Shown piece by piece: positions 18,123-52,024 of a stretch of DNA of 64,000 bases. The notes under the pieces are model-generated. The model made no database searches. It was not told the origin of the DNA and worked only from the letters and a program-made list of their open reading frames with translations. The stretch is from Desulfobacula sp. (GTDB taxonomy: Bacteria > Desulfobacterota > Desulfobacteria > Desulfobacterales > Desulfobacteraceae): NCBI GenBank assembly GCA_018645325.1, contig JABGOU010000003.1, forward strand, positions 98,045-162,044, read 5' to 3'. Made by a program: the position numbers and the translations under genes. Each line of letters starts with the position of its first letter. Positions within the stretch are counted from its first letter, which is position 1.

Positions 18123-18256
18123 GTAATTATTCAGCTCTTAGGCTTGAACCCGCCCTGTCTGATAGATATTTGTTTCGATGCTAAACGCTTAACCTCCTGC
18201 AAATATCCATCAGACAGGGCTTTGGTGATATTTTTTTTAACGGGCTGAACAATTAC
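18123..18256 (-). mobile_element. MITE copy 1 (IS66-type ends, 134 bp), reverse orientation
   Basis: It is bounded by GTAATTATTCAGC and GCTGAACAATTAC, which are inverted repeats. A perfect 8-bp duplication AAATAAAA lies at 18115-18122 and 18257-18264. Inside is a long imperfect palindrome built on GCCCTGTCTGAT and its complement. No transposase is encoded. GTAA ends with 8-bp duplications are the hallmark of the IS66 family. The rest of 17984-18431 holds only this element and the tetR promoter region. Confidence 0.85.
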
Positions 18257-18370
18257 AAATAAAACAATAATGATCCGGTTGATCCGGCTTAAGTATTATC
18301 CTGGAAAAAACTAGTTGACTATCCTGTATATTTTCTTGACAAGTGATTGAATAAATGTAAAAAAAACCAT

Positions 18371-18386
18371 GACTGAGCGCTCGTTC
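18371..18386. promoter_or_regulatory. TetR-type operator in front of the tetR gene
   Basis: GACTGAGCGCTCGTTC is centred on the palindrome GAGCGCTC, 46-61 bases before the tetR start. Its reverse complement shares 15 identical bases with 35200-35214 upstream of an acyl-CoA ligase gene. Identical palindromes before a TetR gene and a distant metabolic gene are best read as a regulator's own operator and one of its targets. Confidence 0.6.
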
Positions 18387-18431
18387 AAATTTCATTAGAA
18401 ACAACCTTGTTACAGGGAAGGAAGCGATCAT

Positions 18432-19082
18432 TTGGGAAGAATTAAAAAATCCGGAAACGAAATATCGGCAGTAGAAGTCCCGACACAAATAAAAAATCCT
18501 GAACTGGTTAGGGAGAGACGGCGCCAGATTATCGATTCCACTGTTAAGCTTTTTATTGAACACGGATATCACAAGACAACGACACGGATGATCGCAAAGG
18601 CATCTAACTTTTCAATTGGTTCTTTATATGAGTATGTAAGCTCTAAAGAGGACCTGCTATACCTTGTATGCAAAACTATTCATGAGGAAGTTCAGGATGC
18701 AGTTGAAAAGGCCTTGTCAAATACGGATAAGGAAAAAGAAAGACTTGCATCTGCTGTCAGGCAGTATTTTTATGTTTGCGATAAGCTGGGAGATCATATC
18801 CTTCTCATGTATCAGGTGACGCAATTTCTGCCGGAAAAATGGAAAGAGGATGTCCTTGTGAATGAGTTGAATATTACAGATATTTTTATAAATGCTTTGT
18901 CTTCTTTATCCGGGAAGAATAAATTTCCAAAGCTTGATGACAAAACAATAAATCTTGTGGGCCACAATATCTCTGTTCTGGGTCAGATGTGGGCTTTTCG
19001 AAGATGGCATGTTCAAAGAAATTTCACCATTGAGGAATATATTAGAATTCAAACCAACTTTATCCTTGGATTGATATTTTAA
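18432..19082 (+). CDS. TetR/AcrR family transcriptional regulator
   Basis: A 216-residue protein. The N-terminal TetR domain reads RERRRQIIDSTVKLFIEHGYHKTTTRMIAKASNFSIGSLYEYVSSKEDLLYLV, including the helix-turn-helix. The C-terminal ligand domain is of the fatty-acid regulator type and ends with WHVQRNFTIEEYIRIQTNFI. The start is TTG with GGAAGGA about 10 bases upstream. It precedes an acyl-CoA mutase, thiolase and 3-hydroxyacyl-CoA dehydrogenase, and its probable operator also occurs at an acyl-CoA ligase gene. An acyl-CoA-responsive repressor is therefore the likely role. Confidence 0.85.
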   Translation: MGRIKKSGNEISAVEVPTQIKNPELVRERRRQIIDSTVKLFIEHGYHKTTTRMIAKASNFSIGSLYEYVSSKEDLLYLVCKTIHEEVQDAVEKALSNTDKEKERLASAVRQYFYVCDKLGDHILLMYQVTQFLPEKWKEDVLVNELNITDIFINALSSLSGKNKFPKLDDKTINLVGHNISVLGQMWAFRRWHVQRNFTIEEYIRIQTNFILGLIF

Positions 19083-19191
19083 TATAATGAAAAATTTTTA
19101 TTTTATAAAACTTTATGTAAATTAAATAATAAATTATAAGTATTTTTTAAGTTTGACCAAACTCCCGAAGACTTTTTTAAAAGGAGAAATG

Positions 19192-22100
19192 ATGAGTATG
19201 GAAACCCAAAGTTATACCCCTGATAATTCTATTAAAATTGTTACTGCAACATCTCTTTTTGACGGGCATGATGCAGCCATAAATATAATGAGAAGAATTT
19301 TGCAGGATTCCGGTGCTGAAGTGATCCATATCGGTCATAACAGGTCTGCAAAGGAAGTTGTGGATGCAGCCATTGAAGAAGATGCCCAGGGCATTGCCGT
19401 GTCCAGTTATCAGGGTGGGCACATTGAATATTTTAAGTATATGGTGGATCTTTTAAAAGAAAAAGGCGCATCGCATATTAAAATTTTCGGTGGCGGGGGC
19501 GGTGTGATCATTCCTCTGGAAATGGATGAGCTGCATGCCTATGGAGTGACAAGGATTTATTCTCCTGAAGATGGTTCAAAAATGGGGCTTCAGGGCATGA
19601 TCAATGACATGATGCAATCCATGGATGTTCCTTGTGTTGATTATAAAAACCTTAATTATGACAATCTTACCATTGGCAATAAATATGTGACGGCAAATTT
19701 TATTTCTGCAGTCCAGGAAGCCAAGGCCAATGACCTGGAAACATTTAAAAAAATAATTTTAAATATTAATAAGCTTGCAGATAAAAAAGATATACCAGTC
19801 ATAGGATTAACGGGGACGGGGGGGGCAGGCAAGTCCTCTTTAACGGATGAACTGGTTATCAGGATTTTAAGGGATCTTAAAGACATCAATATTGCCATTA
19901 TCTCTTGTGATCCTTCCAGACGGAAAACCGGCGGTGCTCTTTTAGGGGACAGGATCAGGATGAATTCCATTGAAACAGGCCGGGTTTATATGAGGTCCCT
20001 TGCAACCAGACGTTCCCAGACAGAGCTTCCAGAGGCGTTACCAGATGCCATAAGCGTGGTCAAGGCAGCAGGTTATGATATGGTGATTGTTGAAACAGCA
20101 GGTATAGGCCAGGGCGATTCAAGGGTGGTGGATCTTGTGGATATGTCCATCTATGTGATGACTGCGGAATTTGGTGCTCCTTCCCAGTTGGAAAAGATAG
20201 ACATGCTGGATTATGCGGATATAGTTGTAGTGAATAAATATGAGAAAAAAGGCAGTGAAGATGCCATAAGGGATGTCAGAAAACAGGTCCAGAGAAATCG
20301 CAAGGCATGGGATATGGATCCAAAGGAATTGCCCGTATATGGAACCATTGCCTCAAAATTTAATGATGATGGGATAACTGCTTTTTATCACGGGCTTTTA
20401 GACCTTATTTTTGAAAAGAAAAATATTAAATTTGAATCCACTATTGAAAGGACAGGCATAAAAGAATCTTCTTCAAAGACTATTATCATCCCGGGAGAGA
20501 GAACCCGATACCTTGCCGAGATCGCCGATTCAATCAGGCAATACCATGTAACGACAAAAGATCAGGCAAAAGCCGTGCGGAATCGATGGCATTTAATTGA
20601 GGCTTTAAAAACATTGGAAAACAGGGGTTTTGATCAATTACCCGAGGCTCTTGAAAAGTTTAAGGAGGCTGTTTCCGATGCAATGTCTTTTGTTGAGGAT
20701 GAAACAGATAAGACCATAAATGAATTCAATACCTGCAAAGCCATGTTTGAAAAAGATGAACTGGTGTATTATGTCAGGGGTAAGGAATTGAAAGTCCCCT
20801 TATACAGTAAATCTTTGTCCCATTCTAAAATATCTAAAATATCTCTCCCCCAGTTCATAGATCCGGCCCATCAGTATTCATGGATGAGAAAAGAAAATTT
20901 TGCTGGAAATTTTCCCTTCACAGCCGGGGTGTTCCCTTTAAAGAGGGCAGATGAAGATCCTACACGGATGTTTGCAGGAGAGGGCGGCCCCAAAGATACC
21001 AATAAGCGGTTCAAGCTTTTGTCACAAAGTTATCCTGCCAAACGATTGTCCACAGCTTTTGATTCAGTTACCCTTTACGGATTTGATCCAGATACCCGTC
21101 CGGATATCTACGGCAAGATAGGAACTTCTGGTGTGAGCATATGTACTTTAGATGATGTAAAAGTTCTTTATGGCGGGTTTGATCTCTGTGCTCCAAATAC
21201 TTCTGTATCAATGACCATTAACGGCCCTGCTCCCATGATGCTGGCCATGTTTATGAATACTGCCATTGACCAGCAGATGAAAATTTTTAAAGAGAAGAAT
21301 GACCGGGAACCGTCTAAAGAAGAAAAGGAATCAATCAAACAGTTTGCCCTTTCAAATGTGAGGGGAACTGTTCAGGCAGACATTTTAAAAGAAGACCAGG
21401 GACAGAATACCTGTATTTTTTCAATTGAGTTTGCCCTGAGAATGATGGGTGACATCCAGCAGTATTTTATAGATCATAAGGTCCAAAATTTTTATTCTGT
21501 TTCCATTTCAGGGTATCATATTGCAGAAGCCGGTGCCAATCCCATTACCCAGCTTGCCTTAACCCTGGCAAACGGGTTTACTTATGTGGAGTATTATCTT
21601 TCCCGGGGTATGGATATCGACACCTTTGCTCCCTCACTTTCCTTTTTCTTTTCCAATGGAATGGACCCTGAATATACAGTGATCGGAAGAGTGGCAAGAC
21701 GAATCTGGGCCGTGGCCATGAAATATAAATACAAGGGAAATGAAAAATCCCAGAAGCTTAAATATCATATCCAGACTTCGGGAAGATCTCTGCACAGCCA
21801 GGATATTCAGTTTAATGACATCAGAACAACTCTCCAGGGACTGTGCGCTATTTATGATAATTGTAACAGTCTTCATACCAATGCTTTTGATGAAGCCATA
21901 ACAACACCTTCTGCAGAATCGGTGCGGCGGGCTTTGGCAATCCAGTTGATTGTAAATAGGGAATGGGGTCTGGCCAAGAATGAAAATCCTATGCAGGGAA
22001 GTTTTATTGTTGATGAACTAACCGATCTTGTGGAGGAAGCAGTCCTGGTTGAATTTGAAAGAATTACGGAAAGAGGAGGTGTCCTTGGCGCAATGGAAAC

Positions 22101-22467
22101 AGGTTACCAGAGAGGCAAGATCCAGGAAGAATCCATTTACTATGAACAATTGAAACATTCAGGCAAACATCCCATTGTCGGTGTGAATACCTTTGAAGAC
22201 CCAGATGCGGATTATGCGGAAATGGCAAACCATCTGGAGCTTGCAAGGGCGACGGATGATCAGAAAGATGCCCAGCTTGAAAGATTGAACATATTTAAGC
22301 AAAAAAATACAGATAAATCCGGCCAGGCAATTGAAAAATTGAAAAAGGCTGCATTAAATGATGAAAATATGTTTGAAAGATTAATGGATACTGTAAAGGT
22401 TTGCAGTTTGGGAACCATTACCCATTCACTGTATGAGGTAGGCGGAAAATACAGACGAAACATGTAA
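19192..22467 (+). CDS. icmF: Fused B12-dependent acyl-CoA mutase with G-protein chaperone (IcmF type)
   Basis: A 1091-residue protein with the IcmF order. First comes a cobalamin-binding domain (TATSLFDGHDAAINIM, with the DxH base-off motif near residues 24-26). Next is a MeaB-like GTPase (Walker A GLTGTGGAGKSSL; SCDPSRRKTGGALLGDRIRMN). The mutase TIM barrel follows (PFTAGVFPLKRADEDPTRMFAGEG; YGGFDLCAPNTSVSMTINGPAPMM; RGTVQADILKEDQGQNTCIF). Known IcmF enzymes interconvert isobutyryl-CoA and n-butyryl-CoA, some acting on isovaleryl- or pivalyl-CoA. AAGGAG 5 bases before 19192 sets the start; ATG 19189 is too close. A thiolase follows after 19 bases. The exact acyl substrate is not settled by sequence reading. 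Confidence 0.88.
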   Translation: MSMETQSYTPDNSIKIVTATSLFDGHDAAINIMRRILQDSGAEVIHIGHNRSAKEVVDAAIEEDAQGIAVSSYQGGHIEYFKYMVDLLKEKGASHIKIFGGGGGVIIPLEMDELHAYGVTRIYSPEDGSKMGLQGMINDMMQSMDVPCVDYKNLNYDNLTIGNKYVTANFISAVQEAKANDLETFKKIILNINKLADKKDIPVIGLTGTGGAGKSSLTDELVIRILRDLKDINIAIISCDPSRRKTGGALLGDRIRMNSIETGRVYMRSLATRRSQTELPEALPDAISVVKAAGYDMVIVETAGIGQGDSRVVDLVDMSIYVMTAEFGAPSQLEKIDMLDYADIVVVNKYEKKGSEDAIRDVRKQVQRNRKAWDMDPKELPVYGTIASKFNDDGITAFYHGLLDLIFEKKNIKFESTIERTGIKESSSKTIIIPGERTRYLAEIADSIRQYHVTTKDQAKAVRNRWHLIEALKTLENRGFDQLPEALEKFKEAVSDAMSFVEDETDKTINEFNTCKAMFEKDELVYYVRGKELKVPLYSKSLSHSKISKISLPQFIDPAHQYSWMRKENFAGNFPFTAGVFPLKRADEDPTRMFAGEGGPKDTNKRFKLLSQSYPAKRLSTAFDSVTLYGFDPDTRPDIYGKIGTSGVSICTLDDVKVLYGGFDLCAPNTSVSMTINGPAPMMLAMFMNTAIDQQMKIFKEKNDREPSKEEKESIKQFALSNVRGTVQADILKEDQGQNTCIFSIEFALRMMGDIQQYFIDHKVQNFYSVSISGYHIAEAGANPITQLALTLANGFTYVEYYLSRGMDIDTFAPSLSFFFSNGMDPEYTVIGRVARRIWAVAMKYKYKGNEKSQKLKYHIQTSGRSLHSQDIQFNDIRTTLQGLCAIYDNCNSLHTNAFDEAITTPSAESVRRALAIQLIVNREWGLAKNENPMQGSFIVDELTDLVEEAVLVEFERITERGGVLGAMETGYQRGKIQEESIYYEQLKHSGKHPIVGVNTFEDPDADYAEMANHLELARATDDQKDAQLERLNIFKQKNTDKSGQAIEKLKKAALNDENMFERLMDTVKVCSLGTITHSLYEVGGKYRRNM

Positions 22468-22486
22468 AATATAAGGAGATATATAT

Positions 22487-23662
22487 ATGAATAAAGCAGT
22501 TATAGTGAGTGCCACGCGGACGGCTCTGGGGAGTTTTGGCGGAAGCTTAAGTAAAATTGGTGCAACTAACCTTGGAGCCCATGTGATAAGAGAGGCTATA
22601 ACAAGGGCGGGCATTGATGATAAAGAAGTAAATGAGTGTATCATGGGCATGGTTCTGCCATGCGGATATGGCCAGAATCCAGGAAAACTTGCCGCTGTTA
22701 AGGCGGGTCTGCCCTGGGAAGTTGAATCCATTACAATAAATAAAGTCTGCGGATCATCATTAAAAGCCGTGATGCTTGCGGCCCAGGCTATCCAGTGCGG
22801 AGATGCCGATGTAGTGGTTGCAGGCGGCATGGAAAATATGAGCATGGCACCATATTATATGGATAAGGCCCGCTGGGGTCTTCGCATGGGGCCGGGGAAA
22901 ATTGAGGATCACATGGTCCATGACGGTTTATGGGATGTGATAAATGATTTTCACATGGGTATTTCCAATGAGCTTTCCAGTGAAAAATGGGATGTATCAA
23001 GACAGGTTCAAGATGAGTTTGCAGCCGGGTCTTATAAAAGAGCCAATGCATCAATTGCCAAAGGAAGGTTTAAAGATGAAATCGTGCCTGTAAAAATTCC
23101 ACAGCGAAAAGGCGATCCAATAATTTTTGATACGGATGAATGCTGCAAAGAGACAAGTCTTGAACTTCTTTCAAAGATGAGACCGGCCTTTAAAAAAGAT
23201 GGTGTGGGAACTGCCGGTAATGCTTCCATTATCAGTGACGGCGCCTCAGCTTTAGTTGTCATGAGTGAAAATAAAGCAAAGGAGTTAGGGTGTGAAATCA
23301 TGGCCACAATCGGTTCCCAGTGTTCCTATGGCATTGATATGAAATATGTTTTAATGGCCCCGATTTTTGCCATTCCCAAGGTGTTGAAAAAGCAGGGACT
23401 GTCTATCTCAGATATTGATCTGTTTGAAATCAATGAAGCATTTGCAGGCAGCTCAGCAGGCATTAACAAGGTGCTTGATTTAGATCCGGAACGAGTAAAT
23501 GTTAATGGCGGCAGTGTTGCACTGGGTCATCCAATAGGTGCAAGCGGGGCCAGGGTTTTGACCACATTATTATATGAAATGAAAAAGCGTGATGTGAATA
23601 CAGGCCTTGCCTCTCTTTGTCTGGGAGGTGGAGAGGCTGTGGCCCTTGTCGTCAATCGGTGA
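22487..23662 (+). CDS. Acetyl-CoA C-acetyltransferase (thiolase)
   Basis: A 391-residue thiolase. The acyl-enzyme cysteine is in NKVCGSSLKAVMLAAQAI, the histidine in NGGSVALGHPIGASGAR and the second cysteine in LCLGGGEAVALVV. GVGTAGNASIISDGASAL is also present. The family usually has about 390 residues, so the gene is complete. AAGGAGA precedes the ATG, and it is co-directional with icmF. Likely role: thiolysis of acetoacetyl-CoA or a related 3-oxoacyl-CoA to acetyl-CoA, the last step after IcmF and dehydrogenation. Confidence 0.92.
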   Translation: MNKAVIVSATRTALGSFGGSLSKIGATNLGAHVIREAITRAGIDDKEVNECIMGMVLPCGYGQNPGKLAAVKAGLPWEVESITINKVCGSSLKAVMLAAQAIQCGDADVVVAGGMENMSMAPYYMDKARWGLRMGPGKIEDHMVHDGLWDVINDFHMGISNELSSEKWDVSRQVQDEFAAGSYKRANASIAKGRFKDEIVPVKIPQRKGDPIIFDTDECCKETSLELLSKMRPAFKKDGVGTAGNASIISDGASALVVMSENKAKELGCEIMATIGSQCSYGIDMKYVLMAPIFAIPKVLKKQGLSISDIDLFEINEAFAGSSAGINKVLDLDPERVNVNGGSVALGHPIGASGARVLTTLLYEMKKRDVNTGLASLCLGGGEAVALVVNR

Positions 23663-23690
23663 TGGTAATAATAAATATACAAGACAATTT

Positions 23691-23825
23691 GTAATTGTTC
23701 AGCCCGTTAAAAAAAGCTATCCCCAAAGCCCTGTCTGATGGATATTTGCAGGAGGTTAAGCGTTTAGCATCGAAACAAATATCTATCAAACAGGGCGGTT
23801 TCAAGTGTAAGAGCTGAATAATTAC
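23691..23825 (+). mobile_element. MITE copy 2 (IS66-type ends, 135 bp)
   Basis: Ends GTAATTGTTCAGC and GCTGAATAATTAC, flanked by the perfect 8-bp duplication GACAATTT (23683-23690 and 23826-23833). The internal palindrome is the same as in the other three copies. It is inserted between the thiolase and 3-hydroxyacyl-CoA dehydrogenase genes, splitting a likely operon, and its stem may affect read-through to the downstream gene. Confidence 0.88.
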
Positions 23826-23874
23826 GACAATTTTTATAAATAAAAAAACGTAAAAAAAATATTGAGGAGAGATA

Positions 23875-24726
23875 ATGGAAGTTAAAAAATTTGGTGTTAT
23901 AGGATCCGGTCAGATGGGTAATGGGATTGCACAGGTTGCAGCAGCCAGCGGCCTTGAAGTTTTGATGAGCGATATAAAAGAAGAATTTTGTGAAAAAGGT
24001 ATTGCCACCATATCAAAAAATCTTGACAGGATGGTTAAAAATGAAAAAATTTCCGAGGATACAAAAAAGACAATCCTTGGCAGAATTACAACTACCACTG
24101 ATTTAAAAGATATGGCATCTGTGGATTTTGTTGTTGAGGCAGCAGTGGAAAGAGAGGATTTAAAATTTAAAATTTTTGAAGACCTGGATAAAATATGCCC
24201 GCCCCAGGTTATTTTGTCCACCAACACCTCTTCCATACCCATAGGCAGGATTGCCGCCAGAACATCAAGACCAGATAAAGTGATCGGTATGCATTTTATG
24301 AATCCTGTACCTGTTATGAAACTTGTTGAAGTCATTAAAGGTCTTGCCACTTCAAAAGAGACTTTTGATATGACATGGAAACTGTGCGAAGACTTTGGAA
24401 AAACCCCGGCAGAAGCCAATGATTTTCCAGGCTTTATAGCCAACAGGATCTTGATGCCCATGATCAATGAGGCTGTCTTCTGCCTCTACCAGAGCGTGGG
24501 AAAACCCGAAGATATCGATACGGTGATGAAACTTGGTGCCAACCATCCAATGGGTCCCCTTGCGTTGGCAGACCTTATCGGGCTTGATACCTGTCTTGCC
24601 ATCATGGAGACATTGTATGATGGGTTTAAAGATTCTAAATACAGACCCTGTCCTCTTTTGAGAAAATATGTTGAAGCCGGCTGGCTGGGAAGAAAATCTG
24701 GAAAAGGATTTTACGACTACAAATAG
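23875..24726 (+). CDS. 3-hydroxybutyryl-CoA (3-hydroxyacyl-CoA) dehydrogenase
   Basis: A 283-residue protein of the short, monofunctional type. The NAD-binding start is FGVIGSGQMGNGIAQVAAASGLEVLMSD. The active-site block is MHFMNPVPVMKLVEVIKG with the catalytic His, then FPGFIANRILMPMINEAVFCL and the C-terminal domain ending GWLGRKSGKGFYDYK. It oxidises (S)-3-hydroxybutyryl-CoA to acetoacetyl-CoA with NAD. GAGGAGA lies just before the ATG. It is downstream of icmF and thiolase, and a MITE sits in the gap. Complete and typical. Confidence 0.92.
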   Translation: MEVKKFGVIGSGQMGNGIAQVAAASGLEVLMSDIKEEFCEKGIATISKNLDRMVKNEKISEDTKKTILGRITTTTDLKDMASVDFVVEAAVEREDLKFKIFEDLDKICPPQVILSTNTSSIPIGRIAARTSRPDKVIGMHFMNPVPVMKLVEVIKGLATSKETFDMTWKLCEDFGKTPAEANDFPGFIANRILMPMINEAVFCLYQSVGKPEDIDTVMKLGANHPMGPLALADLIGLDTCLAIMETLYDGFKDSKYRPCPLLRKYVEAGWLGRKSGKGFYDYK

Positions 24727-24732
24727 TAGTTT

Positions 24733-24786
24733 GGGGTCAGGCTTTCCTTATTGCCTCAATAACGACAATAAGGAAAGCCTGACCCC
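24733..24786. repeat. REP-like perfect palindrome
   Basis: Two perfect 21-base arms (24733-24753 and 24766-24786, beginning GGGGTCAGG and ending CCTGACCCC) enclose a 12-base loop. GACCCCATTTGAT is then repeated at 24781 and 24794 with a further CCCC/GGGG stem. The GGGGTCAGGC core is reminiscent of palindromes associated with Y1 REP transposases in many genomes. Here it occurs once, directly after the dehydrogenase stop, and could also serve as a transcript end. Confidence 0.6.
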
Positions 24787-24819
24787 ATTTGATGACCCCA
24801 TTTGATGGGGAAAAAGATT

Positions 24820-25398
24820 ATGGAATATGGCCGGAGCACGCCTGAGGAAGAATTAAAATCACGAATTGCCAACCTGCAGAAAAGACTTGGGAAAACAAAA
24901 GTTGACGGGGTTCTGATTTTACAGAAAGCTGATCTCTTTTACTATTCAGGAACTGCCCAGCAGGGGTGGCTTTATATCCCTGAATCAGGAGAACCCCTGC
25001 TGATGATTTTTAAGGATTATCAGCGGGCCAGACAAGAATCAGGAATAGACAGGGTTGTCAGTATTATAAGCCCTAAAGAAATCCCTGAAACCATTTTATC
25101 ATCTGGTTATGAGATGCCAAAAAATCTGGGCCTTGAAATGGATGTTCTTTCTGCCAACCAATATATTTTATTTCAAGATATATTTTCTCCTGCCAGGATT
25201 ATTGATATTTCTTTGCAGATCAGGATGCAGCGTGCTGTTAAATCTAAGTATGAAATCATTTTGATGCGCCAGACGTCGCATATGGCGGATAAAGTTGCAG
25301 CCAAGGTACAAGACATCATCGAACCTGGAATGAGCGAGATTGAGTTTGCAGGATTATTGGAAGCCCACGCCAGGAGCCTTGGCCACCAGGATTGGTAA
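24820..25398 (+). pseudogene. Truncated M24-family (Xaa-Pro aminopeptidase-like) protein
   Basis: About 190 residues remain. The creatinase-type N-terminal domain is complete (RIANLQKRLGKTKVDGVLIL, DLFYYSGTAQQGWLYIPESG). Then IRMQRAVKSKYEIILMRQTSHMADKVAAKVQ and EPGMSEIEFAGLLEAHARSLGHQDW start the pita-bread catalytic domain, and the frame stops. The metal-binding Asp, His and Glu residues of M24 peptidases, which lie further on, are missing, and no continuation is seen before the opposite-strand gene at 25460. A deletion remnant is the simplest explanation. A standalone N-terminal domain protein is less likely. Confidence 0.7.
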
Positions 25399-25459
25399 CA
25401 GATAATGGTCTTGAATCCCTGACAAACTATAGTGATAAAATTACAATATTATAACGGGT

Positions 25460-26362
25460 TTAGCGCCCATATTTATTATCAAATGAGTTCCAGAAGCTTC
25501 TGTCTTTTTCCCTCCATCCTTTGCCGAATGATTTGTCAAAGAAGGGTTTCAGATTGGAAAACCAGGCGCCATAACCCTGTTTGCCTTCTATCCGGGCTCT
25601 GATGACATCGGCAACATGATCGGCAAGATTAGCAAGAAAATCTTTGGGAACATAGGAGTCCGCACCTTTTTGAATGGATTCCTTTAAATTTTCAGAGGTC
25701 AGGGCATGGGCAGTCAACATTATTGCGGGAATATTTTTTTTCCGGGCAAGCTCAAGCACATCATAACCGGAAACCCCCATAATATCCAGAATCGCTATAT
25801 CATATGTGTTGTTTTCAAGAAGTCTTTTAGCTTCATCAAAACTGGCTGCAGTATCAAGAGAGCACATGTCCAATAATTCTTCAACTGTTTCCAGAATATC
25901 AGGCTCATCATCAACCACCAGGATTCGCCGGTCTTTTAAAAGATCATTTGTTTTAATCTTATTTAGATCAAACTTGGCAGTGGTGACGGGGCAGGGTGCT
26001 TTAAGGATAACATATCGGGATGTTGATCCCAGGATAGCTTTTTGAGCTTTTGATTTTTTACGTATTCCCAGAAAGATGTGATCAATTTTATTTTCTTCGG
26101 CAAATTGAACAAGATCTTCACCGGGAGAAAGTCCTCTGACGCTTTGTTGCGTCTCGCACTGCACACCTGAATTTTTCATGAGTTTTTTAGCAAAGGCAAG
26201 GTTTTCTTCCGCTTTAATAATATCAGACTGTTTTTCAGAAGCCCCACCTTCCATAGAGGCGATTACATAAACAAAAGCATTATTTGTTTTGGCATAATCT
26301 CTAGCAAGGGATAAAGCCAGCCTTCCAACTTCTCCACCATCATATCCAACCAGTATTTTCAT
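25460..26362 (-). CDS. Universal stress protein fused to a response-regulator receiver domain
   Basis: A 300-residue protein. Residues 1-130 form a UspA domain (MKILVGYDGGEVGRLALSLARDY; the usual nucleotide loop is seen as GSTSRYVILKAPCPV). Residues about 143-262 form a receiver domain with RILVVDDEPDILE, phospho-acceptor Asp in AILDIMGVSG, Thr in IMLTAHA and Lys in SYVPKD. A basic and aromatic tail follows (WFSNLKPFFDKSFGKGWREKDRSFW). There is no DNA-binding domain. It is the last gene of the branched-chain ABC operon, 22 bases after livF, with AGGAGT upstream. It may tune transport or metabolism by protein contact. Confidence 0.82.
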   Translation of the reverse strand: MKILVGYDGGEVGRLALSLARDYAKTNNAFVYVIASMEGGASEKQSDIIKAEENLAFAKKLMKNSGVQCETQQSVRGLSPGEDLVQFAEENKIDHIFLGIRKKSKAQKAILGSTSRYVILKAPCPVTTAKFDLNKIKTNDLLKDRRILVVDDEPDILETVEELLDMCSLDTAASFDEAKRLLENNTYDIAILDIMGVSGYDVLELARKKNIPAIMLTAHALTSENLKESIQKGADSYVPKDFLANLADHVADVIRARIEGKQGYGAWFSNLKPFFDKSFGKGWREKDRSFWNSFDNKYGR

Positions 26363-26384
26363 AATGAACTCCTAAAATTACAGT

Positions 26385-27191: not shown

Positions 27192-27229
27192 ATGCACTTT
27201 CTTTTTTGTTTTTGGCTTTATTTTTGGGG

Positions 27230-27279
27230 TTAACTTACCGAAAACCTGATTTGTCTTTATCTGATTTCCGGTAAGTTAA
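27230..27279. promoter_or_regulatory. Inverted repeat between livK and livF
   Basis: TTAACTTACCG (27230-27240) and CGGTAAGTTAA (27269-27279) form an 11-bp stem around a 28-base loop in the 158-base gap after the binding-protein gene. On the minus strand T-rich sequence follows. It may be a partial terminator or an mRNA-stabilising structure that raises livK expression relative to livF. Confidence 0.4.
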
Positions 27280-27349
27280 GGTTCAGCTTGTTCAAGGGAT
27301 TCTTTTTATTGGATTCATTAAAATTAATCCCTTTCTAAATTAAAATACT

Positions 27350-28576: not shown

Positions 28577-28639
28577 GTTTCTTCTCCTTCTTGGGTTTAG
28601 TGAGTAACTAAAAAAAATATATGTAAAGGTGTGACAGTT

Positions 28640-29734: not shown

Positions 29735-29737
29735 AGG

Positions 29738-30631: not shown

Positions 30632-30636
30632 ATGAT

Positions 30637-32565: not shown

Positions 32566-32569
32566 AGAT

Positions 32570-35214: not shown

Positions 35215-35255
35215 TCAATACATTAGATTGTAATAATTCAATTTTATCTGGTTTG

Positions 35256-37589: not shown

Positions 37590-37776
37590 AAATAAACTCC
37601 ATAAAGACTTTACAAGATTGATAGATCCTCGTATAACATAAAGGTCTCACGTAACAAAATGTGAGTTGCAAGATTTTAATATTTTTTAAAAAGATGTAGC
37701 CGATACATAACATTGGCTACAATATATAAAATCATTGATTGACATTGCAAGGATTTTAAAAGGTTCAACTAAGAAA

Positions 37777-38517: not shown

Positions 38518-38531
38518 TGATTTTAAGGCTT

Positions 38532-42056: not shown

Positions 42057-42152
42057 TTTTAAGCTCCATTATTCTTTTTATTCAATTATTATAGGAATCC
42101 ATTATTTTTTTCATTACAAAAAATTATATCAGGCAAAAAACAATTTCTAATT

Positions 42153-42289
42153 GTAATTGTTCAGCCCGTTAAAAAAAAATTCTTCCCAAAGCCCTGTCTG
42201 ATGGATATTTGCAGGAGGTTAAGCGAATAGCCTCGAAACAAATATTCATCAGACAGGGCGGGTTCAAGCGCAAGAACCAAAATAATTAC
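42153..42289 (+). mobile_element. MITE copy 3 (IS66-type ends, 137 bp)
   Basis: Left end GTAATTGTTCAGCCC; the right end is diverged (AAGAACCAAAATAATTAC). Flanks are TTCTAATT (42145-42152) and GTCTAATT (42290-42297), a 7 of 8 match. The internal palindrome GCCCTGTCTGAT...ATCAGACAGGGC is intact. The decayed right end and flank suggest an older insertion than copies 1, 2 and 4. It lies between the ICMT-like gene and the cyclase gene. Confidence 0.82.
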
Positions 42290-42300
42290 GTCTAATTTTT

Positions 42301-43860: not shown

Positions 43861-44000
43861 TGCTCCCCCTCTAATTGGTTTTCAATTAATGCAAGTAAGC
43901 TTTTTTTCCACCGAAAATTTATCTTTTTTTATGGAGCTTTGCATCATTGATTCTCCCATTGGGTTTTGTCTGCTCTATATTTCAGGTTCATTCTTTTTTA

Positions 44001-44075
44001 GTCTAAAGCAGATAGATAATCCAGCATGTTAACCTAAAAGAAAAGAGTGCGTCAATATAAAGGGATAAAATTATT
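44001..44075 (+). repeat. Imperfect 75-bp direct repeat, copy A
   Basis: Starts GTCTAAAGCAGATAGATAAT and ends GGGATAAAATTATT. About 80 percent of positions match 48921-48994. It lies just before the remnants of the Fur/PerR-like gene in the non-coding stretch 43861-44139. It could be a duplicated promoter/leader, for example of a regulator gene, or the edge of an old element. Confidence 0.6.
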
Positions 44076-44139
44076 ATACAAAGCATAGGCTTGGCGTTTT
44101 TCTACTATTATCCCAAATTTTCGTTGTTGATATTCATAG

Positions 44140-44451
44140 GCAGATAATTGAAATAGGTATTTATTGAAAAGAAAATACCTTGCCACTGTATACAGAAATA
44201 TAGTATTACTTAAATCTCTTGGTGAAGTTCTTGAGCTCGGTTTTTCGGATGGGAGCAATCGATACGATGGGAATAATCCTTACCCCCATCCACATGTTAT
44301 TTGTATCAAATGTAAAAAAATAGTCGATTCGGACCTGGATAGTCTGGATGAAATTAAAAAAGAGGCCGCATCAGAGACAAACTTTAAAATTTTAAATCAC
44401 CGATTAGATTTTTTCGGTATTTGCAGCAATTGCTTGGCAGAAAAAGCTTAA
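44140..44451 (+). pseudogene. Fur/PerR-family regulator, N-terminally decayed
   Basis: The intact part, about 95 residues from a TTG at 44164, contains LATVYRNIVLLKSLGEVLEL and FSDGSNRYDGN, then the zinc/iron region HPHVICIKCKKIVDSD and FKILNHRLDFFGICSNC. This is the second half of a Fur/PerR protein. The first 40-50 residues (most of the DNA-binding winged helix) are missing. Upstream, the same frame shows ADN-stop-NRYLLKR, which resembles the lost A(E/D)xIYRYL segment, with several stops. The remaining piece has half the recognition region and is probably non-functional. It sits upstream of katG, as PerR genes often do. Confidence 0.7.
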
Positions 44452-44471
44452 TATATTTTTCCCCCACCAAT

Positions 44472-44486
44472 TGATAATTATTATCA
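44472..44486. promoter_or_regulatory. Perfect Fur/PerR-type 7-1-7 box before katG
   Basis: TGATAATTATTATCA is an exact 7-1-7 inverted repeat equal to the consensus Fur box core and one base per arm away from the PerR box (TTATAATNATTATAA). It ends 45 bases before the katG start codon, in the expected operator position. The Fur/PerR gene next to it is broken, so another family member in the genome would have to bind. Confidence 0.75.
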
Positions 44487-44491
44487 CATAA

Positions 44492-46729
<2,238 letters not shown>

Positions 46730-46816
46730 TCGTACAATGATATTTTCAATAAGGTTTAGTGCCTTGGGAAAAAATAAAAACAACATTAATGCAAGGTAAC
46801 CCAAAGGAGAACAATC

Positions 46817-47698
46817 ATGCCGGATGCTGATGATCTTAAAGAAGGAAAAAAATATTATACAGATGTACCCCAGGAAACAGAAGGTTTTTTTCTAAAGGGT
46901 TGTGGGCACCTGGACTGGGGCATGAAGAACCGGTTGGCCCGGATTTTCAATCCCAAATCCGGCCGCACGGTTATGCTGGCCATCGATCACGGATATTTCC
47001 AGGGACCTACCACAGGATTAGAACGGGTGGATCTGAATATCGTCCCGTTGATTCCCCATGCCGATACCCTGATGCTGACCCGGGGGATGCTTAGAAGCGT
47101 TGTTCCGCCGTCTCTGGATACACCCATTGTTTTACGCGCCAGTGGTGGCTCCAGCATACTCAAAGAGTTGTCCAATGAAGGCATTGCTGTGGATGTCGAG
47201 GATTGCATGCGGCTCAATGTGTGCGCCATGGCCGTTCAGGTCTTTATCGGTGGTGAATTCGAAAAAGAGTCCATCATGAACATGACCAGGATGGTGGACA
47301 TCGGAACACGATACGGTATCCCGACATTGGCTGTTACTGCAGTGGGCACGGACATGGCCCGGGACGCCCGGTACTTTCGATTGGCCACGCGGATTTGTGC
47401 GGAACTCGGCGCTAATTACGTCAAGTCCTATTATGTGGAAAAAGATTTTGAGACGATCACCTCCTCATGCCCCGTACCTATCGTTATGGCCGGCGGCAAG
47501 AAAATTCCGGAGATCGATGCATTGACCATGGCCTATAGGGCCGTTCAGGAGGGTGCCGCTGGCGTCGATATGGGACGTAATATCTTCCAATCTGACGCTC
47601 CGGTGGCCATGCTTAAGGCGGTGGGGGCAGTGGTTCACAACAACGAAACTCCGGAAAAAGCACTGGAACTTTACCAGACGCTGAAAAACCAGGAGTAA
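46817..47698 (+). CDS. lsrF: LsrF-like 3-hydroxy-5-phosphonooxypentane-2,4-dione thiolase (class I aldolase fold)
   Basis: A 293-residue protein that follows E. coli LsrF nearly end to end: [53 protein letters not shown], the Schiff-base lysine in [12 protein letters not shown], and [35 protein letters not shown]. LsrF cleaves phosphorylated autoinducer-2 product to acetyl-CoA and dihydroxyacetone phosphate. No other lsr gene is present; a zinc dehydrogenase follows after 4 bases. Base composition is clearly richer in G and C than the neighbours, which suggests acquisition. It may act on another sugar-phosphate-like substrate. Confidence 0.85.
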
Positions 47699-47702
47699 CC
47701 CC

Positions 47703-48716
47703 ATGAAAAGGTGCATGTGGTACAACAACAGCGATATCCGGATAGAGGAAACTCCCCTGCCCCGGCCGGGCGCTGGGGAGATTCTAATCAAGGTCATGTC
47801 CTGCGGGATTTGCGGCAGCGATGTGGTGGAGTGGTACCGCCTGCCCAATGCGCCGCTGGTCCCGGGACACGAGATGGGCGGCGAGGTGATGGCGTGCGGT
47901 GAGGGGGTAGATGCCTTTGCGACTGGAGACCGGGTGTTCGTGGCGCCCAAGGTTCCCTGCAACCAATGCACGTATTGTGAACGAAAACAGTTTCCCCTCT
48001 GTACGGAGGTCAAGGAAAGGCTGCCCGGCGGGTTTTCCCAAGCCCTTGTCGTGCCGGAAACACTGGTGAAAAACGGCGTCTACCGGTTGCCGGAAAAGGT
48101 CACATACGACCAGAGTACCTTCATCGAACCCCTTGCATGTGTAGTGCGGGCTCAACGGTTGACCCGGGTGGAAAAGGGCTCAACCGTGATGGTAATCGGT
48201 TGCGGAATGTCCGGCCTGCTCCATGTAAAACTGGCCAAATCCAGACTCTGCACTGTCATCGCGTTGGATATCAACCCGGCAAAGATTGAGATGGCCCGGC
48301 GCAGCGGCGCCGATTTTTGTTTGAATGCAGTGGAAAACGTACCGGAAAAATTGACGGACCAGGGCATAAGAAAACCGGATGTGGTCATTTTGTGCGTCGG
48401 GGTTATGGCCGCAGTGGAAACAGCATGGGCATGCGTGGAAAAGGGCGGAGCAGTTGTCTTTTTTGCAGTTCCGTCGCCGGACAAGCGGGTTGTCATTCCC
48501 ATCAATGATCTGTGGACGAAAGAAGTTCGGGTGCTTACCTCCTATTACTGCGGTCCACCGGATATTGTCGATGCCATGGAACACCTTGACTCCGGCAGAA
48601 TCAGCGTGGATGAAATGATCACTCACCGGTTTTGCCTGGAAGATATCGCAGAAGGATTCCGGCTTGTGTGTGACGGCCGCGAATCGATTAAGGTCATTAT
48701 CCGACCCAATGAATGA
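47703..48716 (+). CDS. Zinc-dependent medium-chain alcohol/polyol dehydrogenase
   Basis: A 337-residue MDR enzyme. The catalytic zinc site is SCGICGSDVVEW with PGHEMGGEVMACGEGV. Structural zinc cysteines lie in PKVPCNQCTYCERKQFPLC. The Rossmann motif is MVIGCGMSGLLHVKLAKSR, followed by ALDIN. It resembles sorbitol or threonine dehydrogenase-like proteins. AGGAG overlaps the stop of the lsrF-like gene, so the two are one unit with the same elevated G+C content. It probably makes or uses the keto substrate of its aldolase neighbour. The substrate is not known. Confidence 0.8.
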   Translation: MKRCMWYNNSDIRIEETPLPRPGAGEILIKVMSCGICGSDVVEWYRLPNAPLVPGHEMGGEVMACGEGVDAFATGDRVFVAPKVPCNQCTYCERKQFPLCTEVKERLPGGFSQALVVPETLVKNGVYRLPEKVTYDQSTFIEPLACVVRAQRLTRVEKGSTVMVIGCGMSGLLHVKLAKSRLCTVIALDINPAKIEMARRSGADFCLNAVENVPEKLTDQGIRKPDVVILCVGVMAAVETAWACVEKGGAVVFFAVPSPDKRVVIPINDLWTKEVRVLTSYYCGPPDIVDAMEHLDSGRISVDEMITHRFCLEDIAEGFRLVCDGRESIKVIIRPNE

Positions 48717-48816
48717 GTAAGGGAGTCTGAACGGTGAAAAGGTCTGATTTGAAATCTTCATTGCCGACCCAGGCAATGCTCTGATAATATTCTAACAAAT
48801 TTTAAGCTATAAATAT

Positions 48817-48836
48817 CCTGGCCCTGAGGGCCAGGG
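48817..48836 (+). terminator. Hairpin terminator after the lsrF-like/dehydrogenase pair
   Basis: CCTGGCCC and GGGCCAGG form an 8-bp G+C-rich stem with loop TGA, followed by GTTTGGCTTTAT. The U-tract is poor. It is placed 100 bases after the dehydrogenase stop and closes the G+C-rich unit. The rest of 48717-49069 holds a 74-bp repeat copy and the ilvE leader. Confidence 0.6.
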
Positions 48837-48920
48837 TTTGGCTTTATATTATGATCTCGCGGCTGAAGTTTCATAGATCACTCAGATAGTCAGCTTATTA
48901 TAAATATTTTTTTTTTCTTT

Positions 48921-48994
48921 GTCTAAACCATATAAATAATTTAGTATGGTAATCTAAAAAAAGAGGGCGTTAATATAAAGGTATGAAATTATCT
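48921..48994 (+). repeat. Imperfect 75-bp direct repeat, copy B
   Basis: Starts GTCTAAACCATATAAATAAT and matches 44001-44075 at about 80 percent of positions, including GCGT(C/T)AATATAAAGG. It ends 75 bases before the ilvE start. The two copies bracket katG, the lsrF-like gene and the dehydrogenase gene. Confidence 0.6.
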
Positions 48995-49069
48995 TGACAA
49001 AACCTGTGCTGGGAGCTCATAAAAGTTTGAACAAATAAAGCTAACTCAATTATACTTATGGAGGATATG

Positions 49070-50134
49070 ATGGAAATTAAAGTAACCCAGGTTAATACGA
49101 CCAGAACAAGGCCAAAAGATTCTGATCTGGGCTTTGGGCAGGTATTTACTGACCATATGTTTGTTATGGATTATTCTGAAAATAAAGGATGGCATGATCC
49201 GGAAATTGTGCCCTATGCTGATTTTTCTATTTCACCTGCAGCCATGGTTTTTCATTATGGACAGGCAATCTTTGAAGGATTGAAAGCCTATAAAACTCAG
49301 GATAAGAAGATCTGTCTTTTCAGGCCCAGGGACAATTTTAAAAGAATGAACCGGAGTGCAAAAGGAATGTGCATCCCTAAGATTGACATTGATTTTGTTA
49401 TGGATGCCTTAAAAAAACTGATCAAGGTAGAAGAAAAATGGATTCCTGAAACCCTTGGGACATCTTTATATATCAGGCCCACAATTATTGCATCAGATCC
49501 ATTCTTAGGTGTCAGGGCGTCTTTTACCTATAAATTTTATATTATTCTTTCCTCTGTTGGAGCATACTATGCCGAAGGATTGAACCCTGTGAAAATCTGG
49601 GTTTCAAAAGACCATGTCAGGGCTGCCAAAGGCGGTGTGGGTGAGTTTAAAACCGCAGGTAACTATGCTGCAAGCTTGATTGCTTCTGAGAAAGCAAAAA
49701 AGGATGGATATGCTCAGGTTCTGTGGCTTGATGCCATTGAAAGAAAGTATATAGAAGAAGTGGGTGCAATGAACATCTTTTTTATTATTGATGATGAGAT
49801 TGTGACCCCCAACCTTACGGGGACGATTCTGCCCGGTATCACAAGGTATTCAGTTATAAGTCTTGCTAAAAAATGGGGAATGAACATATCTGAGAGAAAA
49901 CTCAGTATTGATGAAGTTTTTTTGGCCCATGAAAATGGAAGATTAAAAGAGGTGTTTGGCTCAGGAACGGCTGCAGTCATTTCACCTGTGGGTGAAATAA
50001 GATATGGTGACAAGGTGATTTCCATAGGTGATGGTACGCCTGGTGAAATCGCAATGAAATTTTATACGGCCTTGACTGATATTCAATATGGAAAAGCCGA
50101 AGACAGTGAAAACTGGATCGAATTTATAGAATAA
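49070..50134 (+). CDS. ilvE: Branched-chain amino acid aminotransferase (long, class IV PLP)
   Basis: A 354-residue protein of the BCAT type (SPAAMVFHYGQAIFEGLKAYKT; the PLP lysine is in GGVGEFKTAGNYAASLIASEKA; EEVGAMNIFFI; GTILPGITRYSVISLA; GSGTAAVISPVGEI). It interconverts valine, leucine or isoleucine and their 2-oxo acids with 2-oxoglutarate. GGAGG at 49060-49064 overlaps an upstream ATG at 49058 and points to ATG 49070. It is followed by an XRE-cupin regulator and an acyl-CoA dehydrogenase and faces a VOR-like complex, so a catabolic role is plausible. Confidence 0.9.
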   Translation: MEIKVTQVNTTRTRPKDSDLGFGQVFTDHMFVMDYSENKGWHDPEIVPYADFSISPAAMVFHYGQAIFEGLKAYKTQDKKICLFRPRDNFKRMNRSAKGMCIPKIDIDFVMDALKKLIKVEEKWIPETLGTSLYIRPTIIASDPFLGVRASFTYKFYIILSSVGAYYAEGLNPVKIWVSKDHVRAAKGGVGEFKTAGNYAASLIASEKAKKDGYAQVLWLDAIERKYIEEVGAMNIFFIIDDEIVTPNLTGTILPGITRYSVISLAKKWGMNISERKLSIDEVFLAHENGRLKEVFGSGTAAVISPVGEIRYGDKVISIGDGTPGEIAMKFYTALTDIQYGKAEDSENWIEFIE

Positions 50135-50154
50135 CTTTTTGTAACGGAGACTAT

Positions 50155-50700
50155 ATGGCTAAAAAAAAAGGAATCACTCCCATTGGTAAAAGAATAAGAC
50201 GGATCAGGCTGGATAAAAAAATGACCCTGGATACCATAGCCAATGAAACAGGGTTGTCAAAAGAATTTATCAAGAAAATTGAAGCCGGTGATAAACGGCC
50301 GTCTGTTGGAACCCTTTTGCAAATTTCCAGAACTCTTCATATTGATTCAAATTTTTTGCTGAAAGAGCAGGGCGATGCCCTTGAAGAAAGATCCAAGGCC
50401 TATACCAAAAGGACGGATAACTATGCCTACACTCCTTTGACACCAACGGCTGAAAATAAACATCTCAAGGCCTTTAAGATCGTGGTTGGAGCCAAGAAAA
50501 GCCATGATGGTGTGGGGTTTCAGCATGATGGAGAAGAGTTTACCTATGTTCTTAAAGGCAAGGTGGAAGTTAAGGTCGGTGATCATATCAATAAATTAAA
50601 AAAAGGAGATTCACTCCATTTTAATTCTGGCATTAAGCATGATCTTAAAAATACCGGCAAAACCGATGCAGAACTGATTGTTGTGGTATATGCACCATAG
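50155..50700 (+). CDS. XRE-family regulator with cupin sensor domain
   Basis: A 181-residue protein. The N-terminal helix-turn-helix is GKRIRRIRLDKKMTLDTIANETGLSKEFIKKIEAG...SVGTLLQISRTL. A C-terminal cupin barrel reads HDGEEFTYVLKGKVEVKVGDHINKLKKGDSLHFNSGIKHDLKN, with the His/Glu metal-site residues. The cupin probably binds the effector, so it is a local regulator of amino acid or acyl-CoA metabolism. It lies 20 bases after ilvE and 27 before the acyl-CoA dehydrogenase, all in one direction. Confidence 0.88.
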   Translation: MAKKKGITPIGKRIRRIRLDKKMTLDTIANETGLSKEFIKKIEAGDKRPSVGTLLQISRTLHIDSNFLLKEQGDALEERSKAYTKRTDNYAYTPLTPTAENKHLKAFKIVVGAKKSHDGVGFQHDGEEFTYVLKGKVEVKVGDHINKLKKGDSLHFNSGIKHDLKNTGKTDAELIVVVYAP

Positions 50701-50727
50701 CGTTGAAGAGAAATAAAGGAGTCTTTC

Positions 50728-51882
50728 ATGTTATTCAAGCTTACACCTGAACAATTGATGATTCAGAACATGGTCAGAGAATTTTCTCGAAAAGTGGTTG
50801 CAGCAACTGCATCAGAAAGGGATAAAACAAAAGAATTTCCCGCTGAAAATTTCAGGCAGATGGGGGAACTCGGGTTAATGGGCATGATGATACCACAAGA
50901 ATATGGCGGTGAGTCTGCAGATGCCATTTCCTATGTATTGGCATTATCGGAAATTGCGTATTCATGTGCATCAACATCTGTTGTGATGTCCGTCCAAAAT
51001 TCAATTGTTTGTGAAACTCTCAATAAATTCGGGACAGAGGAACAAAAACAAGAGTTCCTTGTACCCCTTGCCTCCGGTGAAATAATTGGTGCTTTTGGAC
51101 TTACAGAGCCGGAGGCAGGATCTGATCCGGTCAGTCAGCAGACAACGGCTGTAAGGGATGGCGATCAATATATTATAAATGGAACCAAGCGGTTCATTAC
51201 ATCGGGTGAACATTCAAAAGTGGTTCTGATCACTGCAAAAACAGATGAGACTAAAGGACATAAGGGGATCAGTTGTTTTATTATTCCCAAAGGGACCTCA
51301 GGTCTTATCGTTGGCAGGCTGGAAGATAAAATGGGGCTGCGGGCATCTGATACAACTGATTTGATAATGGAGAACTGTGCTGTCCCTGCTTCCAATCGCG
51401 TGGGCAAAGAAGGAGATGGATTTAAAATTGCCATGTCAGGCCTGGACAGTGGAAGGATTGGCATTGCAGCCCAATCATATGGTGTTGCAATGGCTGCTTT
51501 TGATGCTGCAATAAAATATGCAAAAAAGAGAAAACAATTCGGGGCAGCCGTTTCTAAACACCAGGCCATTCGGTTTCAGATTGCAGATATGGCTACCCAG
51601 ATTGAGGCTGCCAAACAATTGATATTCTCAGCTGCATCCATGAAAGACCGGGGGGAAACCTATACCAAGGAAGCATCCATTGCCAAACTCTTTGCATCTG
51701 AGATGGTGAACGAGGTGACGGCAAGAGCAATTCAAATACATGGCGGGTATGGGTTTACCAAAGATTATAATGTTGAAAGATTCTACAGGGATGCAAGGGT
51801 GTTTACAATTTATGAAGGTACCAGCGAGATTCAGAGGATTGTCATTTCAAATCAGGTGCTCAAAGATAAGAGAAAACCCTAA
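50728..51882 (+). CDS. Acyl-CoA dehydrogenase
   Basis: A 384-residue FAD enzyme of the short/branched-chain acyl-CoA dehydrogenase family. FAD/substrate contacts are in IGAFGLTEPEAGSDPVSQQTTAV and YIINGTKRFITSGEHSKVVLI. The C-terminal block is IQIHGGYGFTKDYNVERFYRDARVFTIYEGTSEIQRIVI, with the catalytic Glu at YEGTSE. It introduces the 2,3-double bond and passes electrons to ETF. Substrate: butyryl-, isobutyryl- or isovaleryl-CoA are candidates. The stop codon TAA (51880-51882) touches the target duplication of a MITE. Confidence 0.9.
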   Translation: MLFKLTPEQLMIQNMVREFSRKVVAATASERDKTKEFPAENFRQMGELGLMGMMIPQEYGGESADAISYVLALSEIAYSCASTSVVMSVQNSIVCETLNKFGTEEQKQEFLVPLASGEIIGAFGLTEPEAGSDPVSQQTTAVRDGDQYIINGTKRFITSGEHSKVVLITAKTDETKGHKGISCFIIPKGTSGLIVGRLEDKMGLRASDTTDLIMENCAVPASNRVGKEGDGFKIAMSGLDSGRIGIAAQSYGVAMAAFDAAIKYAKKRKQFGAAVSKHQAIRFQIADMATQIEAAKQLIFSAASMKDRGETYTKEASIAKLFASEMVNEVTARAIQIHGGYGFTKDYNVERFYRDARVFTIYEGTSEIQRIVISNQVLKDKRKP

Positions 51883-51889
51883 AATAAAA

Positions 51890-52024
51890 GTAATTGTTCA
51901 GCCCGTTAAAAAAAAATATCCCCAAAGCCCTGTCTGATGTATATTTGCAGGAGGTTAAGCAAATAGCCTCGAAACAAATATCCATCAAACAGGGCGGTTT
52001 CAAGCGTAAGAGCTGAATAATTAC
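51890..52024 (+). mobile_element. MITE copy 4 (IS66-type ends, 135 bp)
   Basis: Ends GTAATTGTTCAGC and GCTGAATAATTAC with the perfect 8-bp duplication AAATAAAA (51882-51889 and 52025-52032), the same target octamer as copy 1. It is inserted immediately behind the acyl-CoA dehydrogenase stop, in front of a strong terminator hairpin. The element is nearly identical to copies 2 and 3 outside the loop. Confidence 0.88.

What the first reader, a model, noticed from the sequence alone, without database searches (positions are those of the whole stretch)
18123..52024. A four-copy 135-bp MITE family with IS66-type ends and exact 8-bp target duplications
Copies at 18123-18256 (reverse), 23691-23825, 42153-42289 and 51890-52024 share GTAATTGTTCAGC/GCTGAATAATTAC ends and a long internal palindrome (GCCCTGTCTGAT...). 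They are flanked by 8-bp duplications: AAATAAAA, GACAATTT, TTCTAATT/GTCTAATT and AAATAAAA. All sit in gaps between genes and none encodes a protein. GTAA ends plus 8-bp duplications are IS66-family traits, so a full IS66-like parent should exist elsewhere. Four copies in 64 kb suggest many genome-wide.
Basis: partly seen in the sequence, partly recalled or inferred. Interest (0 to 1): 0.85.

Follow-up and report, generated by a model that had tools for sequence, protein, structure and literature searches.

The report
Hairpin MITE with IS66-type ends
The four repeats are copies of a 135-base parasitic DNA element that carries no gene, was most likely moved by a borrowed one-protein IS66-type enzyme, and is scattered in many copies between the genes of a marine sulfate-reducing bacterium: a clean example of a familiar kind of element.

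Summary
Observation confirmed; interpretation largely right and now sharpened. All four copies are where stated; three have perfect 8-bp duplications, one 7/8. The window lies in a MAG of the Desulfobacula genus (inferred). Genome-wide the 25-base left end (up to 3 mismatches) occurs 137 times against 0 for the reversed control. Of 82 copies flanked, 48 have an identical 8-bp duplication (0.63 expected from shuffled flanks), 66 at least 7/8. 5 of 82 sites fall in a called gene, against 82% of random points. Sister species show MITE-free sites, one exact. Hairpin arms mutate independently (paired 0.9198 observed, 0.9199 shuffled), so a conserved RNA is not supported. The parent type exists: complete one-ORF IS66 elements in six related genomes end in GTAAYTATTCAGC-like repeats with exact 8-bp duplications; their ends match the MITE's at 11-13 of 13. 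No such element was found in the four MITE-carrying assemblies, which hold only other IS66 branches or fragments. A new family of a known kind; my open-paper searches listed no IS66-derived MITE, a limited negative. Interest low to moderate.

The parts
18115..18122 (.). 8-bp target duplication AAATAAAA, left of copy 1
18123..18256 (-). MITE copy 1 (134 bp)
18257..18264 (.). 8-bp target duplication AAATAAAA, right of copy 1
23683..23690 (.). 8-bp target duplication GACAATTT, left of copy 2
23691..23825 (+). MITE copy 2 (135 bp; used as query)
23728..23748 (+). left arm of the internal 21-bp hairpin of copy 2
   Evidence: consensus positions 38-58
23776..23796 (+). right arm of the internal hairpin of copy 2
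   Evidence: consensus positions 86-106
23826..23833 (.). 8-bp target duplication GACAATTT, right of copy 2
42145..42152 (.). target duplication TTCTAATT, left of copy 3
42153..42289 (+). MITE copy 3 (137 bp, right end changed to AACCAAAATAATTAC)
42290..42297 (.). target duplication GTCTAATT (7 of 8 match), right of copy 3
51882..51889 (.). target duplication AAATAAAA, left of copy 4; its first base is the last base of the stop codon of ORF 50728-51882
51890..52024 (+). MITE copy 4, between the stop codon of the acyl-CoA dehydrogenase gene and a terminator-like hairpin
52025..52032 (.). target duplication AAATAAAA, right of copy 4
52032..52069 (.). terminator-like hairpin that follows the stop codon closely in relatives lacking the MITE
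   Evidence: I7

Best explanation
A non-autonomous miniature transposon (MITE). An IS66-family transposase of the one-ORF ISBst12 type, supplied in trans, recognises the about 13-bp GTAATTRTTCAGC ends and inserts the 135-bp unit into A/T-rich 8-bp targets with staggered cuts; repair leaves the 8-bp duplication. Insertions survive almost only between genes. Shown: ends, duplication length, copy number, intergenic placement, MITE-free sites in sisters, and IS elements in related genomes with near-identical ends and the same duplication length. Inferred: that this transposase type moved the MITE, that the burst is mostly past, and that the parent was lost or not assembled. Whether the unit is copied or cut out is not decided here.
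For: Duplication of exactly 8 bp in 48 of 82 copies (0.63 expected from shuffled flanks; exact 6, 7, 9, 10 bp: 1, 2, 0, 0); 35 of 51 copies from related species also 8/8. Exact empty site in Desulfobacula sp. SI073_bin145 for the copy in L221, and MITE-free orthologous spacers for window copies 2 and 4. 5 of 82 sites in called genes against 82% of 3805 random points. One-ORF IS66 elements of 1718-1833 bp with ends such as GTAATTATTCAGC/GTAACTATTCAGC and identical 8-bp duplications in six genomes; transposase over the cut-offs of NCBIfam transpos_IS66 and Pfam PF03050. ISDge4, ISBst12 group, ends GTGACTACTCAGCA/GTAACTGCTCAGCA with an 8-bp repeat (passages of PMC12898284).
Against: No matching parent in the four carriers: G000 has two IS66 fragments; G031 and G038 have IS66 transposases of other branches and no 13-mer in the held loci L130, L131, L140, L145 matches the MITE ends at more than 10 of 13; the 471-aa transposase has no match in G000, G031 or G039 and a 30%-identical one in G038. 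Beyond the ends, blastn of the MITE consensus against 14 IS66 loci found nothing better than E 0.22. More distant one-ORF elements (L155, L156, L159, L160) match only 9-10 of 13, no better than the longer IS66 elements L124 and L132. 8 of 82 rows show 5 or fewer of 8 duplicated bases. Stem positions change less (0.042) than the rest (0.077), which plain decay does not fully explain.
Confidence: 0.87

Rival explanations
1. A conserved structured RNA gene or regulatory RNA repeated through the genome.
For: Very stable fold: -65.7 kcal/mol for the consensus; stem changes less than the rest; on the + strand, single changes that leave a G-U pair outnumber those that leave C-A, 48 to 31 (binomial p 0.07, copies not independent).
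Against: Arms vary independently: Watson-Crick pairing 0.9198 observed, 0.9199 shuffled, 2 compensated double changes among 1720 cells. No Rfam family at gathering threshold in the window; at E up to 1 only two matches, far below their gathering scores. Target duplications and an exact empty site. No strong orientation bias to neighbours: tandem 21 with and 15 against, divergent 18, convergent 16.
Confidence: 0.04
2. A MITE moved by a different transposase (another IS66 branch or an unrecognised family) that also makes 8-bp duplications.
For: No element of the matching branch was found in the four carriers, while G031 and G038 do hold IS66 transposases of other branches.
Against: Ends agree at 11-13 of 13 with complete one-ORF elements that make the same 8-bp duplication, but at most 10 of 13 with any 13-mer in the carriers' IS66 loci. 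Only IS66 was searched as a family; other IS families in the carriers were not surveyed.
Confidence: 0.09
3. An exapted element: the hairpin now acts as a terminator or mRNA stabiliser at many sites.
For: Strong hairpin; median distance 24 bp from stop codons, 69 cases; copy 4 lies just before a native terminator-like hairpin.
Against: No clear orientation bias and no excess between convergent genes; no selection on pairing seen. Transcript ends were not testable.
Confidence: 0.08

Closest known systems
ISBst12 group of the IS66 family (ISDge4; passages of PMC12898284 read)
   Same: GTAACTGCTCAGCA-type ends and an 8-bp direct repeat; one ORF, as in the elements found here
   Different: ISDge4 encodes a 449-aa transposase; the MITE has no room for one and has a hairpin core not found in the 14 IS66 loci compared
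IS66 element at G048:C168 (L133:757-2515) and the G095 copies (L310, L317, L319)
   Same: 13-bp ends match 12-13 of 13; 8-bp duplications; same genus or order
   Different: 1.76-1.83 kb with a 471-aa transposase; not found in MITE-carrying genomes
Prokaryotic MITEs such as ERIC, Chunjie, QMITE2 (review PMC10969869, passages read)
   Same: Mostly intergenic, hairpin-forming, tens to hundreds of copies, nested insertions reported
   Different: No sequence comparison made; the passages shown name no IS66 parent for them
MITEPsy1 of Pseudomonas syringae (PMC3189936, passages read)
   Same: 100-nt unit without transposase, with ends like a full IS, thought to be moved in trans
   Different: IS5-like ends, 4-nt duplication, and shown to transpose; transposition is not shown here

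Membership tests
Prokaryotic MITE | Short (<300 bp), no transposase gene | tested here: met
   Consensus 135 bp, too short for a transposase
Prokaryotic MITE | Terminal inverted repeats | tested here: met
   13-bp ends GTAATTGTTCAGC / GCTGAATAATTAC
Prokaryotic MITE | Target duplication of fixed length | tested here: met
   48 of 82 exact at 8 bp, control 0.63
Prokaryotic MITE | Dispersed copies with empty sites in relatives | tested here: met
   Copies. One exact empty site (L221/L108) and MITE-free spacers at window copies 2 and 4
Prokaryotic MITE | Moved by a transposase in trans | not testable with these tools
   Needs a transposition assay
IS66 family, ISBst12 group (as non-autonomous derivative) | Ends shared with full elements | tested here: met
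   11-13 of 13 with L133, L310-L313, L315; 9-10 of 13 with more distant one-ORF elements
IS66 family, ISBst12 group (as non-autonomous derivative) | 8-bp duplication | tested here: met
IS66 family, ISBst12 group (as non-autonomous derivative) | Full parent in the same genome | tested here: not met
   assemblies are drafts (157 contigs in G000)
IS66 family, ISBst12 group (as non-autonomous derivative) | Internal sequence derived from the IS by deletion | tested here: inconclusive
   blastn of the consensus against 14 IS66 loci hit only ends and chance-level pieces, best E 0.22; the true parent may not be among them
Structured RNA gene | Compensatory changes that keep the stem | tested here: not met
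Structured RNA gene | Known Rfam family | tested here: not met

The most novel reading that the evidence does not exclude
A high-copy MITE family of the ISBst12 (one-protein) branch of IS66, so that about 13-bp ends and a single transposase suffice for mobility without accessory proteins; its burst then stopped when the parent was lost from the carriers, leaving over a hundred orphans whose duplications date the burst.
Probability: 0.4. Interest if true: 0.45.

Novelty: new member of a known kind. Interest (0 to 1): 0.3.

Why it matters
It gives a clean burst of a transposase-less element with a matching parent type in related genomes, and a minimal natural substrate for the ISBst12 branch of IS66, whose active transposition the authors of PMC12898284 (passage) describe as reported for the first time in 2026. 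It also supplies insertion markers for comparing Desulfobacula genomes, and some G000 contigs end inside copies. It does not change what is known about MITEs in general.

Tried and rejected
RNA gene: not supported, arms drift independently and no Rfam family. Parent in the own genome: the Pfam IS66 search gave two fragments on C106 only, with no MITE-like end within 2 mismatches in its first 20 kb. The same ends with A or G as 14th base, in eight genomes: the one G000 hit is a MITE variant; of the G031 and G038 hits, L189 is a MITE copy, L185 and L187 lie in 692- and 577-aa ORFs, and around L182 no ORF looks like a transposase (read by eye). 12 of 106 left ends lacked a right end at 90-170 bp: three run into a second repeat (L038, L217, L243), three are cut by contig ends, two are internally deleted, four are truncated or otherwise end early; L215 was not followed further. 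Plasmid and phage records: no match; viral contigs: none for the exact stem pattern. Papers: searches; no IS66-derived MITE seen in the listings or in the passages read. Subscription papers and ISfinder were not searchable.

Limits: one search listed only the first 100 or so of 137 places; 82 copies from 100 loci entered the statistics, 3 BLAST rows at locus edges were dropped, and the loci came later and were not added. Of the 8 rows with 5 or fewer duplicated bases, L038, L217 and L241 are interrupted or truncated copies whose right end the script misplaced, and in L236 the end was misplaced although CTTACTTC stands on both sides; I left the counts as computed. Gene calls are simple ORF calls. 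One search's 51 foreign copies include a few with broken ends (L070, L071, L108). Other IS families of the carriers were not surveyed.

Full report
What is there. The four copies are real and placed as described. Copy 1 is reversed. Duplications are AAATAAAA, GACAATTT, TTCTAATT/GTCTAATT and AAATAAAA; three perfect, one 7 of 8. All four lie between the larger ORFs. The repeat finder recovers the family.

Where it is. The window is G000:C81:98045-162044 in an assembly of 4,385,846 bases in 157 contigs. A scan of named genomes for a 28-base piece of the core returned 54 stretches, from Candidatus Desulfobacula maris (JACNHV), Desulfobacula sp. SI073_bin145 (JABIYQ) and one 'Proteobacteria bacterium' MAG (JAHJDU). 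In the family, 4 of 86 genomes carry the MITE at E 1e-6. With the 22-base left end, up to 1 mismatch, 3 of 389 genomes of the order do (G000, G031, G039; G038 was not in that draw).

Copy number. The first look gave 184 candidates, 40 scored. The 25-base left end with up to 3 mismatches occurs 137 times in G000, the reversed pattern 0 times. Some of these are broken copies: 12 of 106 that I could read lack a right end at the usual distance.

Duplications. From 100 loci of G000 I obtained 82 distinct flanked copies: 8/8 in 48, 7/8 in 18, 6/8 in 8, 5/8 or fewer in 8; shuffled pairing of flanks gives 0.63 with 8/8. Exact duplications of 6, 7, 9 and 10 bp occur 1, 2, 0 and 0 times. Of the 8 poor rows, three are interrupted or truncated copies and one (L236) has a misplaced end with a true duplication; four (L041, L049, L235, L246) are real exceptions or decayed. 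The 51 copies from related species give 35 with 8/8. Among the 74 rows with at least 6/8, the two duplicates differ at 5.7% of sites; targets are 89% A+T against 71% in nearby flanks.

Placement. 5 of 82 sites fall inside a called gene, against 82% of 3805 random points in the same loci. Neighbours are tandem in 36 (21 with, 15 against the MITE's direction), divergent in 18, convergent in 16, and incomplete in 7.

MITE-free sites. At window copy 4, three relatives (G044, G041, G040) have the terminator-like hairpin close behind the stop codon; in the window the MITE stands between them. G031 and G039 also lack the MITE but their spacer differs. At copy 2, G031, G039, G051 and G054 lack the MITE; the spacer is too diverged to place the target to the base. 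For the copy in L221, SI073_bin145 (L108) has the uninterrupted target, the two own flanks overlapping by exactly 8 bases on it. When the flanks of all 82 rows were compared with the 54 foreign loci, three sites were seen occupied on both sides: L217/L080 (the own copy has a second repeat nested in it), L043/L069 (identical contigs) and L237/L100 (same target, opposite orientation). L245/L080 and L005/L067 look MITE-free but align poorly; the other partial matches were not resolved. So occupied and free sites are both few in this comparison.

Structure and decay. The 135-bp consensus has 21-bp arms that pair perfectly, plus pairing ends (-65.7 kcal/mol). Copies are at a median 94.8% to the consensus and 91.9% to each other; 7 of 3321 pairs are 99% or more alike. 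The arms do not co-vary: 0.9198 Watson-Crick paired, 0.9199 when shuffled; 2 compensated double changes among 1720 cells. Leaning the other way: stem positions change less (0.042) than the rest (0.077), and changes that leave G-U outnumber those that leave C-A, 48 to 31, p 0.07. Two subfamilies among the 51 foreign copies also keep strong folds, -57.5 and -49.2 kcal/mol. I read this as a hairpin present in the source elements, with copies drifting after insertion.

Parent. The IS66 Pfam family is found in 15 of 26 genomes of the genus; in G000 only as two fragments, in G039 not at all, in G031 and G038 as other branches. G048:C168 holds a complete element of 1759 bp, one 471-aa ORF, ends GTAATTATTCAGC and GTAACTATTCAGC, flanked by TATAATTT twice. 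Its protein is an IS66 transposase by the curated NCBIfam model. Relatives (10 of 389 genomes of the order at E 1e-150) in G095, G145, G209, G106 and G156 have ends 11-12 of 13 like the MITE's and exact 8-bp duplications (L310-L313, L315, L317-L319); no pair of ends was found in L314, L316, L320, L153 or L154, though L153 has one such end (12 of 13). One end in L310 reads GTAACTATTCAGCCCGGTTT, close to the MITE's GTAATTGTTCAGCCCGTTAAAA. More distant one-ORF elements (L155, L156, L159, L160) and the longer IS66 elements L124 and L132 match only 9-10 of 13. Beyond the ends, the MITE has nothing in common with the 14 IS66 loci compared (best E 0.22). ISDge4, an ISBst12-group member seen to transpose, has GTGACTACTCAGCA/GTAACTGCTCAGCA and an 8-bp repeat; its authors suggest copy-and-paste (passages of PMC12898284). 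No carrier was found to have the matching transposase. G048, which has 22 places with such an end, many near contig ends, has no MITE match.

Verdict. A MITE, most likely of the ISBst12 branch of IS66; new as a family as far as my searches reach, ordinary as a kind.

Noticed in passing
L243:743-901, L217, L038, L058, L275; genome-wide: A second MITE-like repeat of about 159 bp with GGGTCCACTC...GAGTGGACCC ends and what looks like a 3-bp TTA/TAA duplication; in three loci it sits in the loop region of the first MITE (truncated in L038), and in L275 the first MITE abuts its end. 29 matching places among 40 scored of 74 candidates in the own genome, some being the two strands of one palindromic copy. 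In the window only one poor 3-mismatch end-like hit at 14389.
   Followed up: partly
L237 (own) and L100 (SI073_bin145): Both species carry a MITE at the same TTTTAATG target but in opposite orientation, 86% alike; flanking pieces are 87-95% alike. Two separate insertions seem likelier because each copy resembles a different subfamily, but an in-place inversion is not excluded.
   Followed up: partly
L043 (G000:C30) and L069 (JABIYQ010000381): 500 + 500 flanking bases are 100% identical between two species' MAGs; possibly a misbinned contig or recent transfer.
   Followed up: no
L116:3115-7828 (G000:C106): Two IS66 transposase fragments, contiguous at profile position 259, stand either side of a block with three long tandem ORFs on the other strand that look like tyrosine recombinases (named from recall, no family search run).
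   Followed up: no
Thiolase to 3-hydroxyacyl-CoA dehydrogenase spacer in G039 (L252) and G051 (L253): GGTCAGGCTTTCCTTATTGTC-like repeats stand in the spacer that holds the MITE in the window.
   Followed up: no
window 63498-63640 and 63849-63991: Two 143-nt direct repeats, 76% alike, inside the ORF at 63389-64000; likely repeated protein segments.
   Followed up: no
MITE loop, e.g. window 23750-23756: The hairpin loop region keeps an AGGAGGT stretch that resembles a ribosome-binding site in most of the 82 copies.
   Followed up: no
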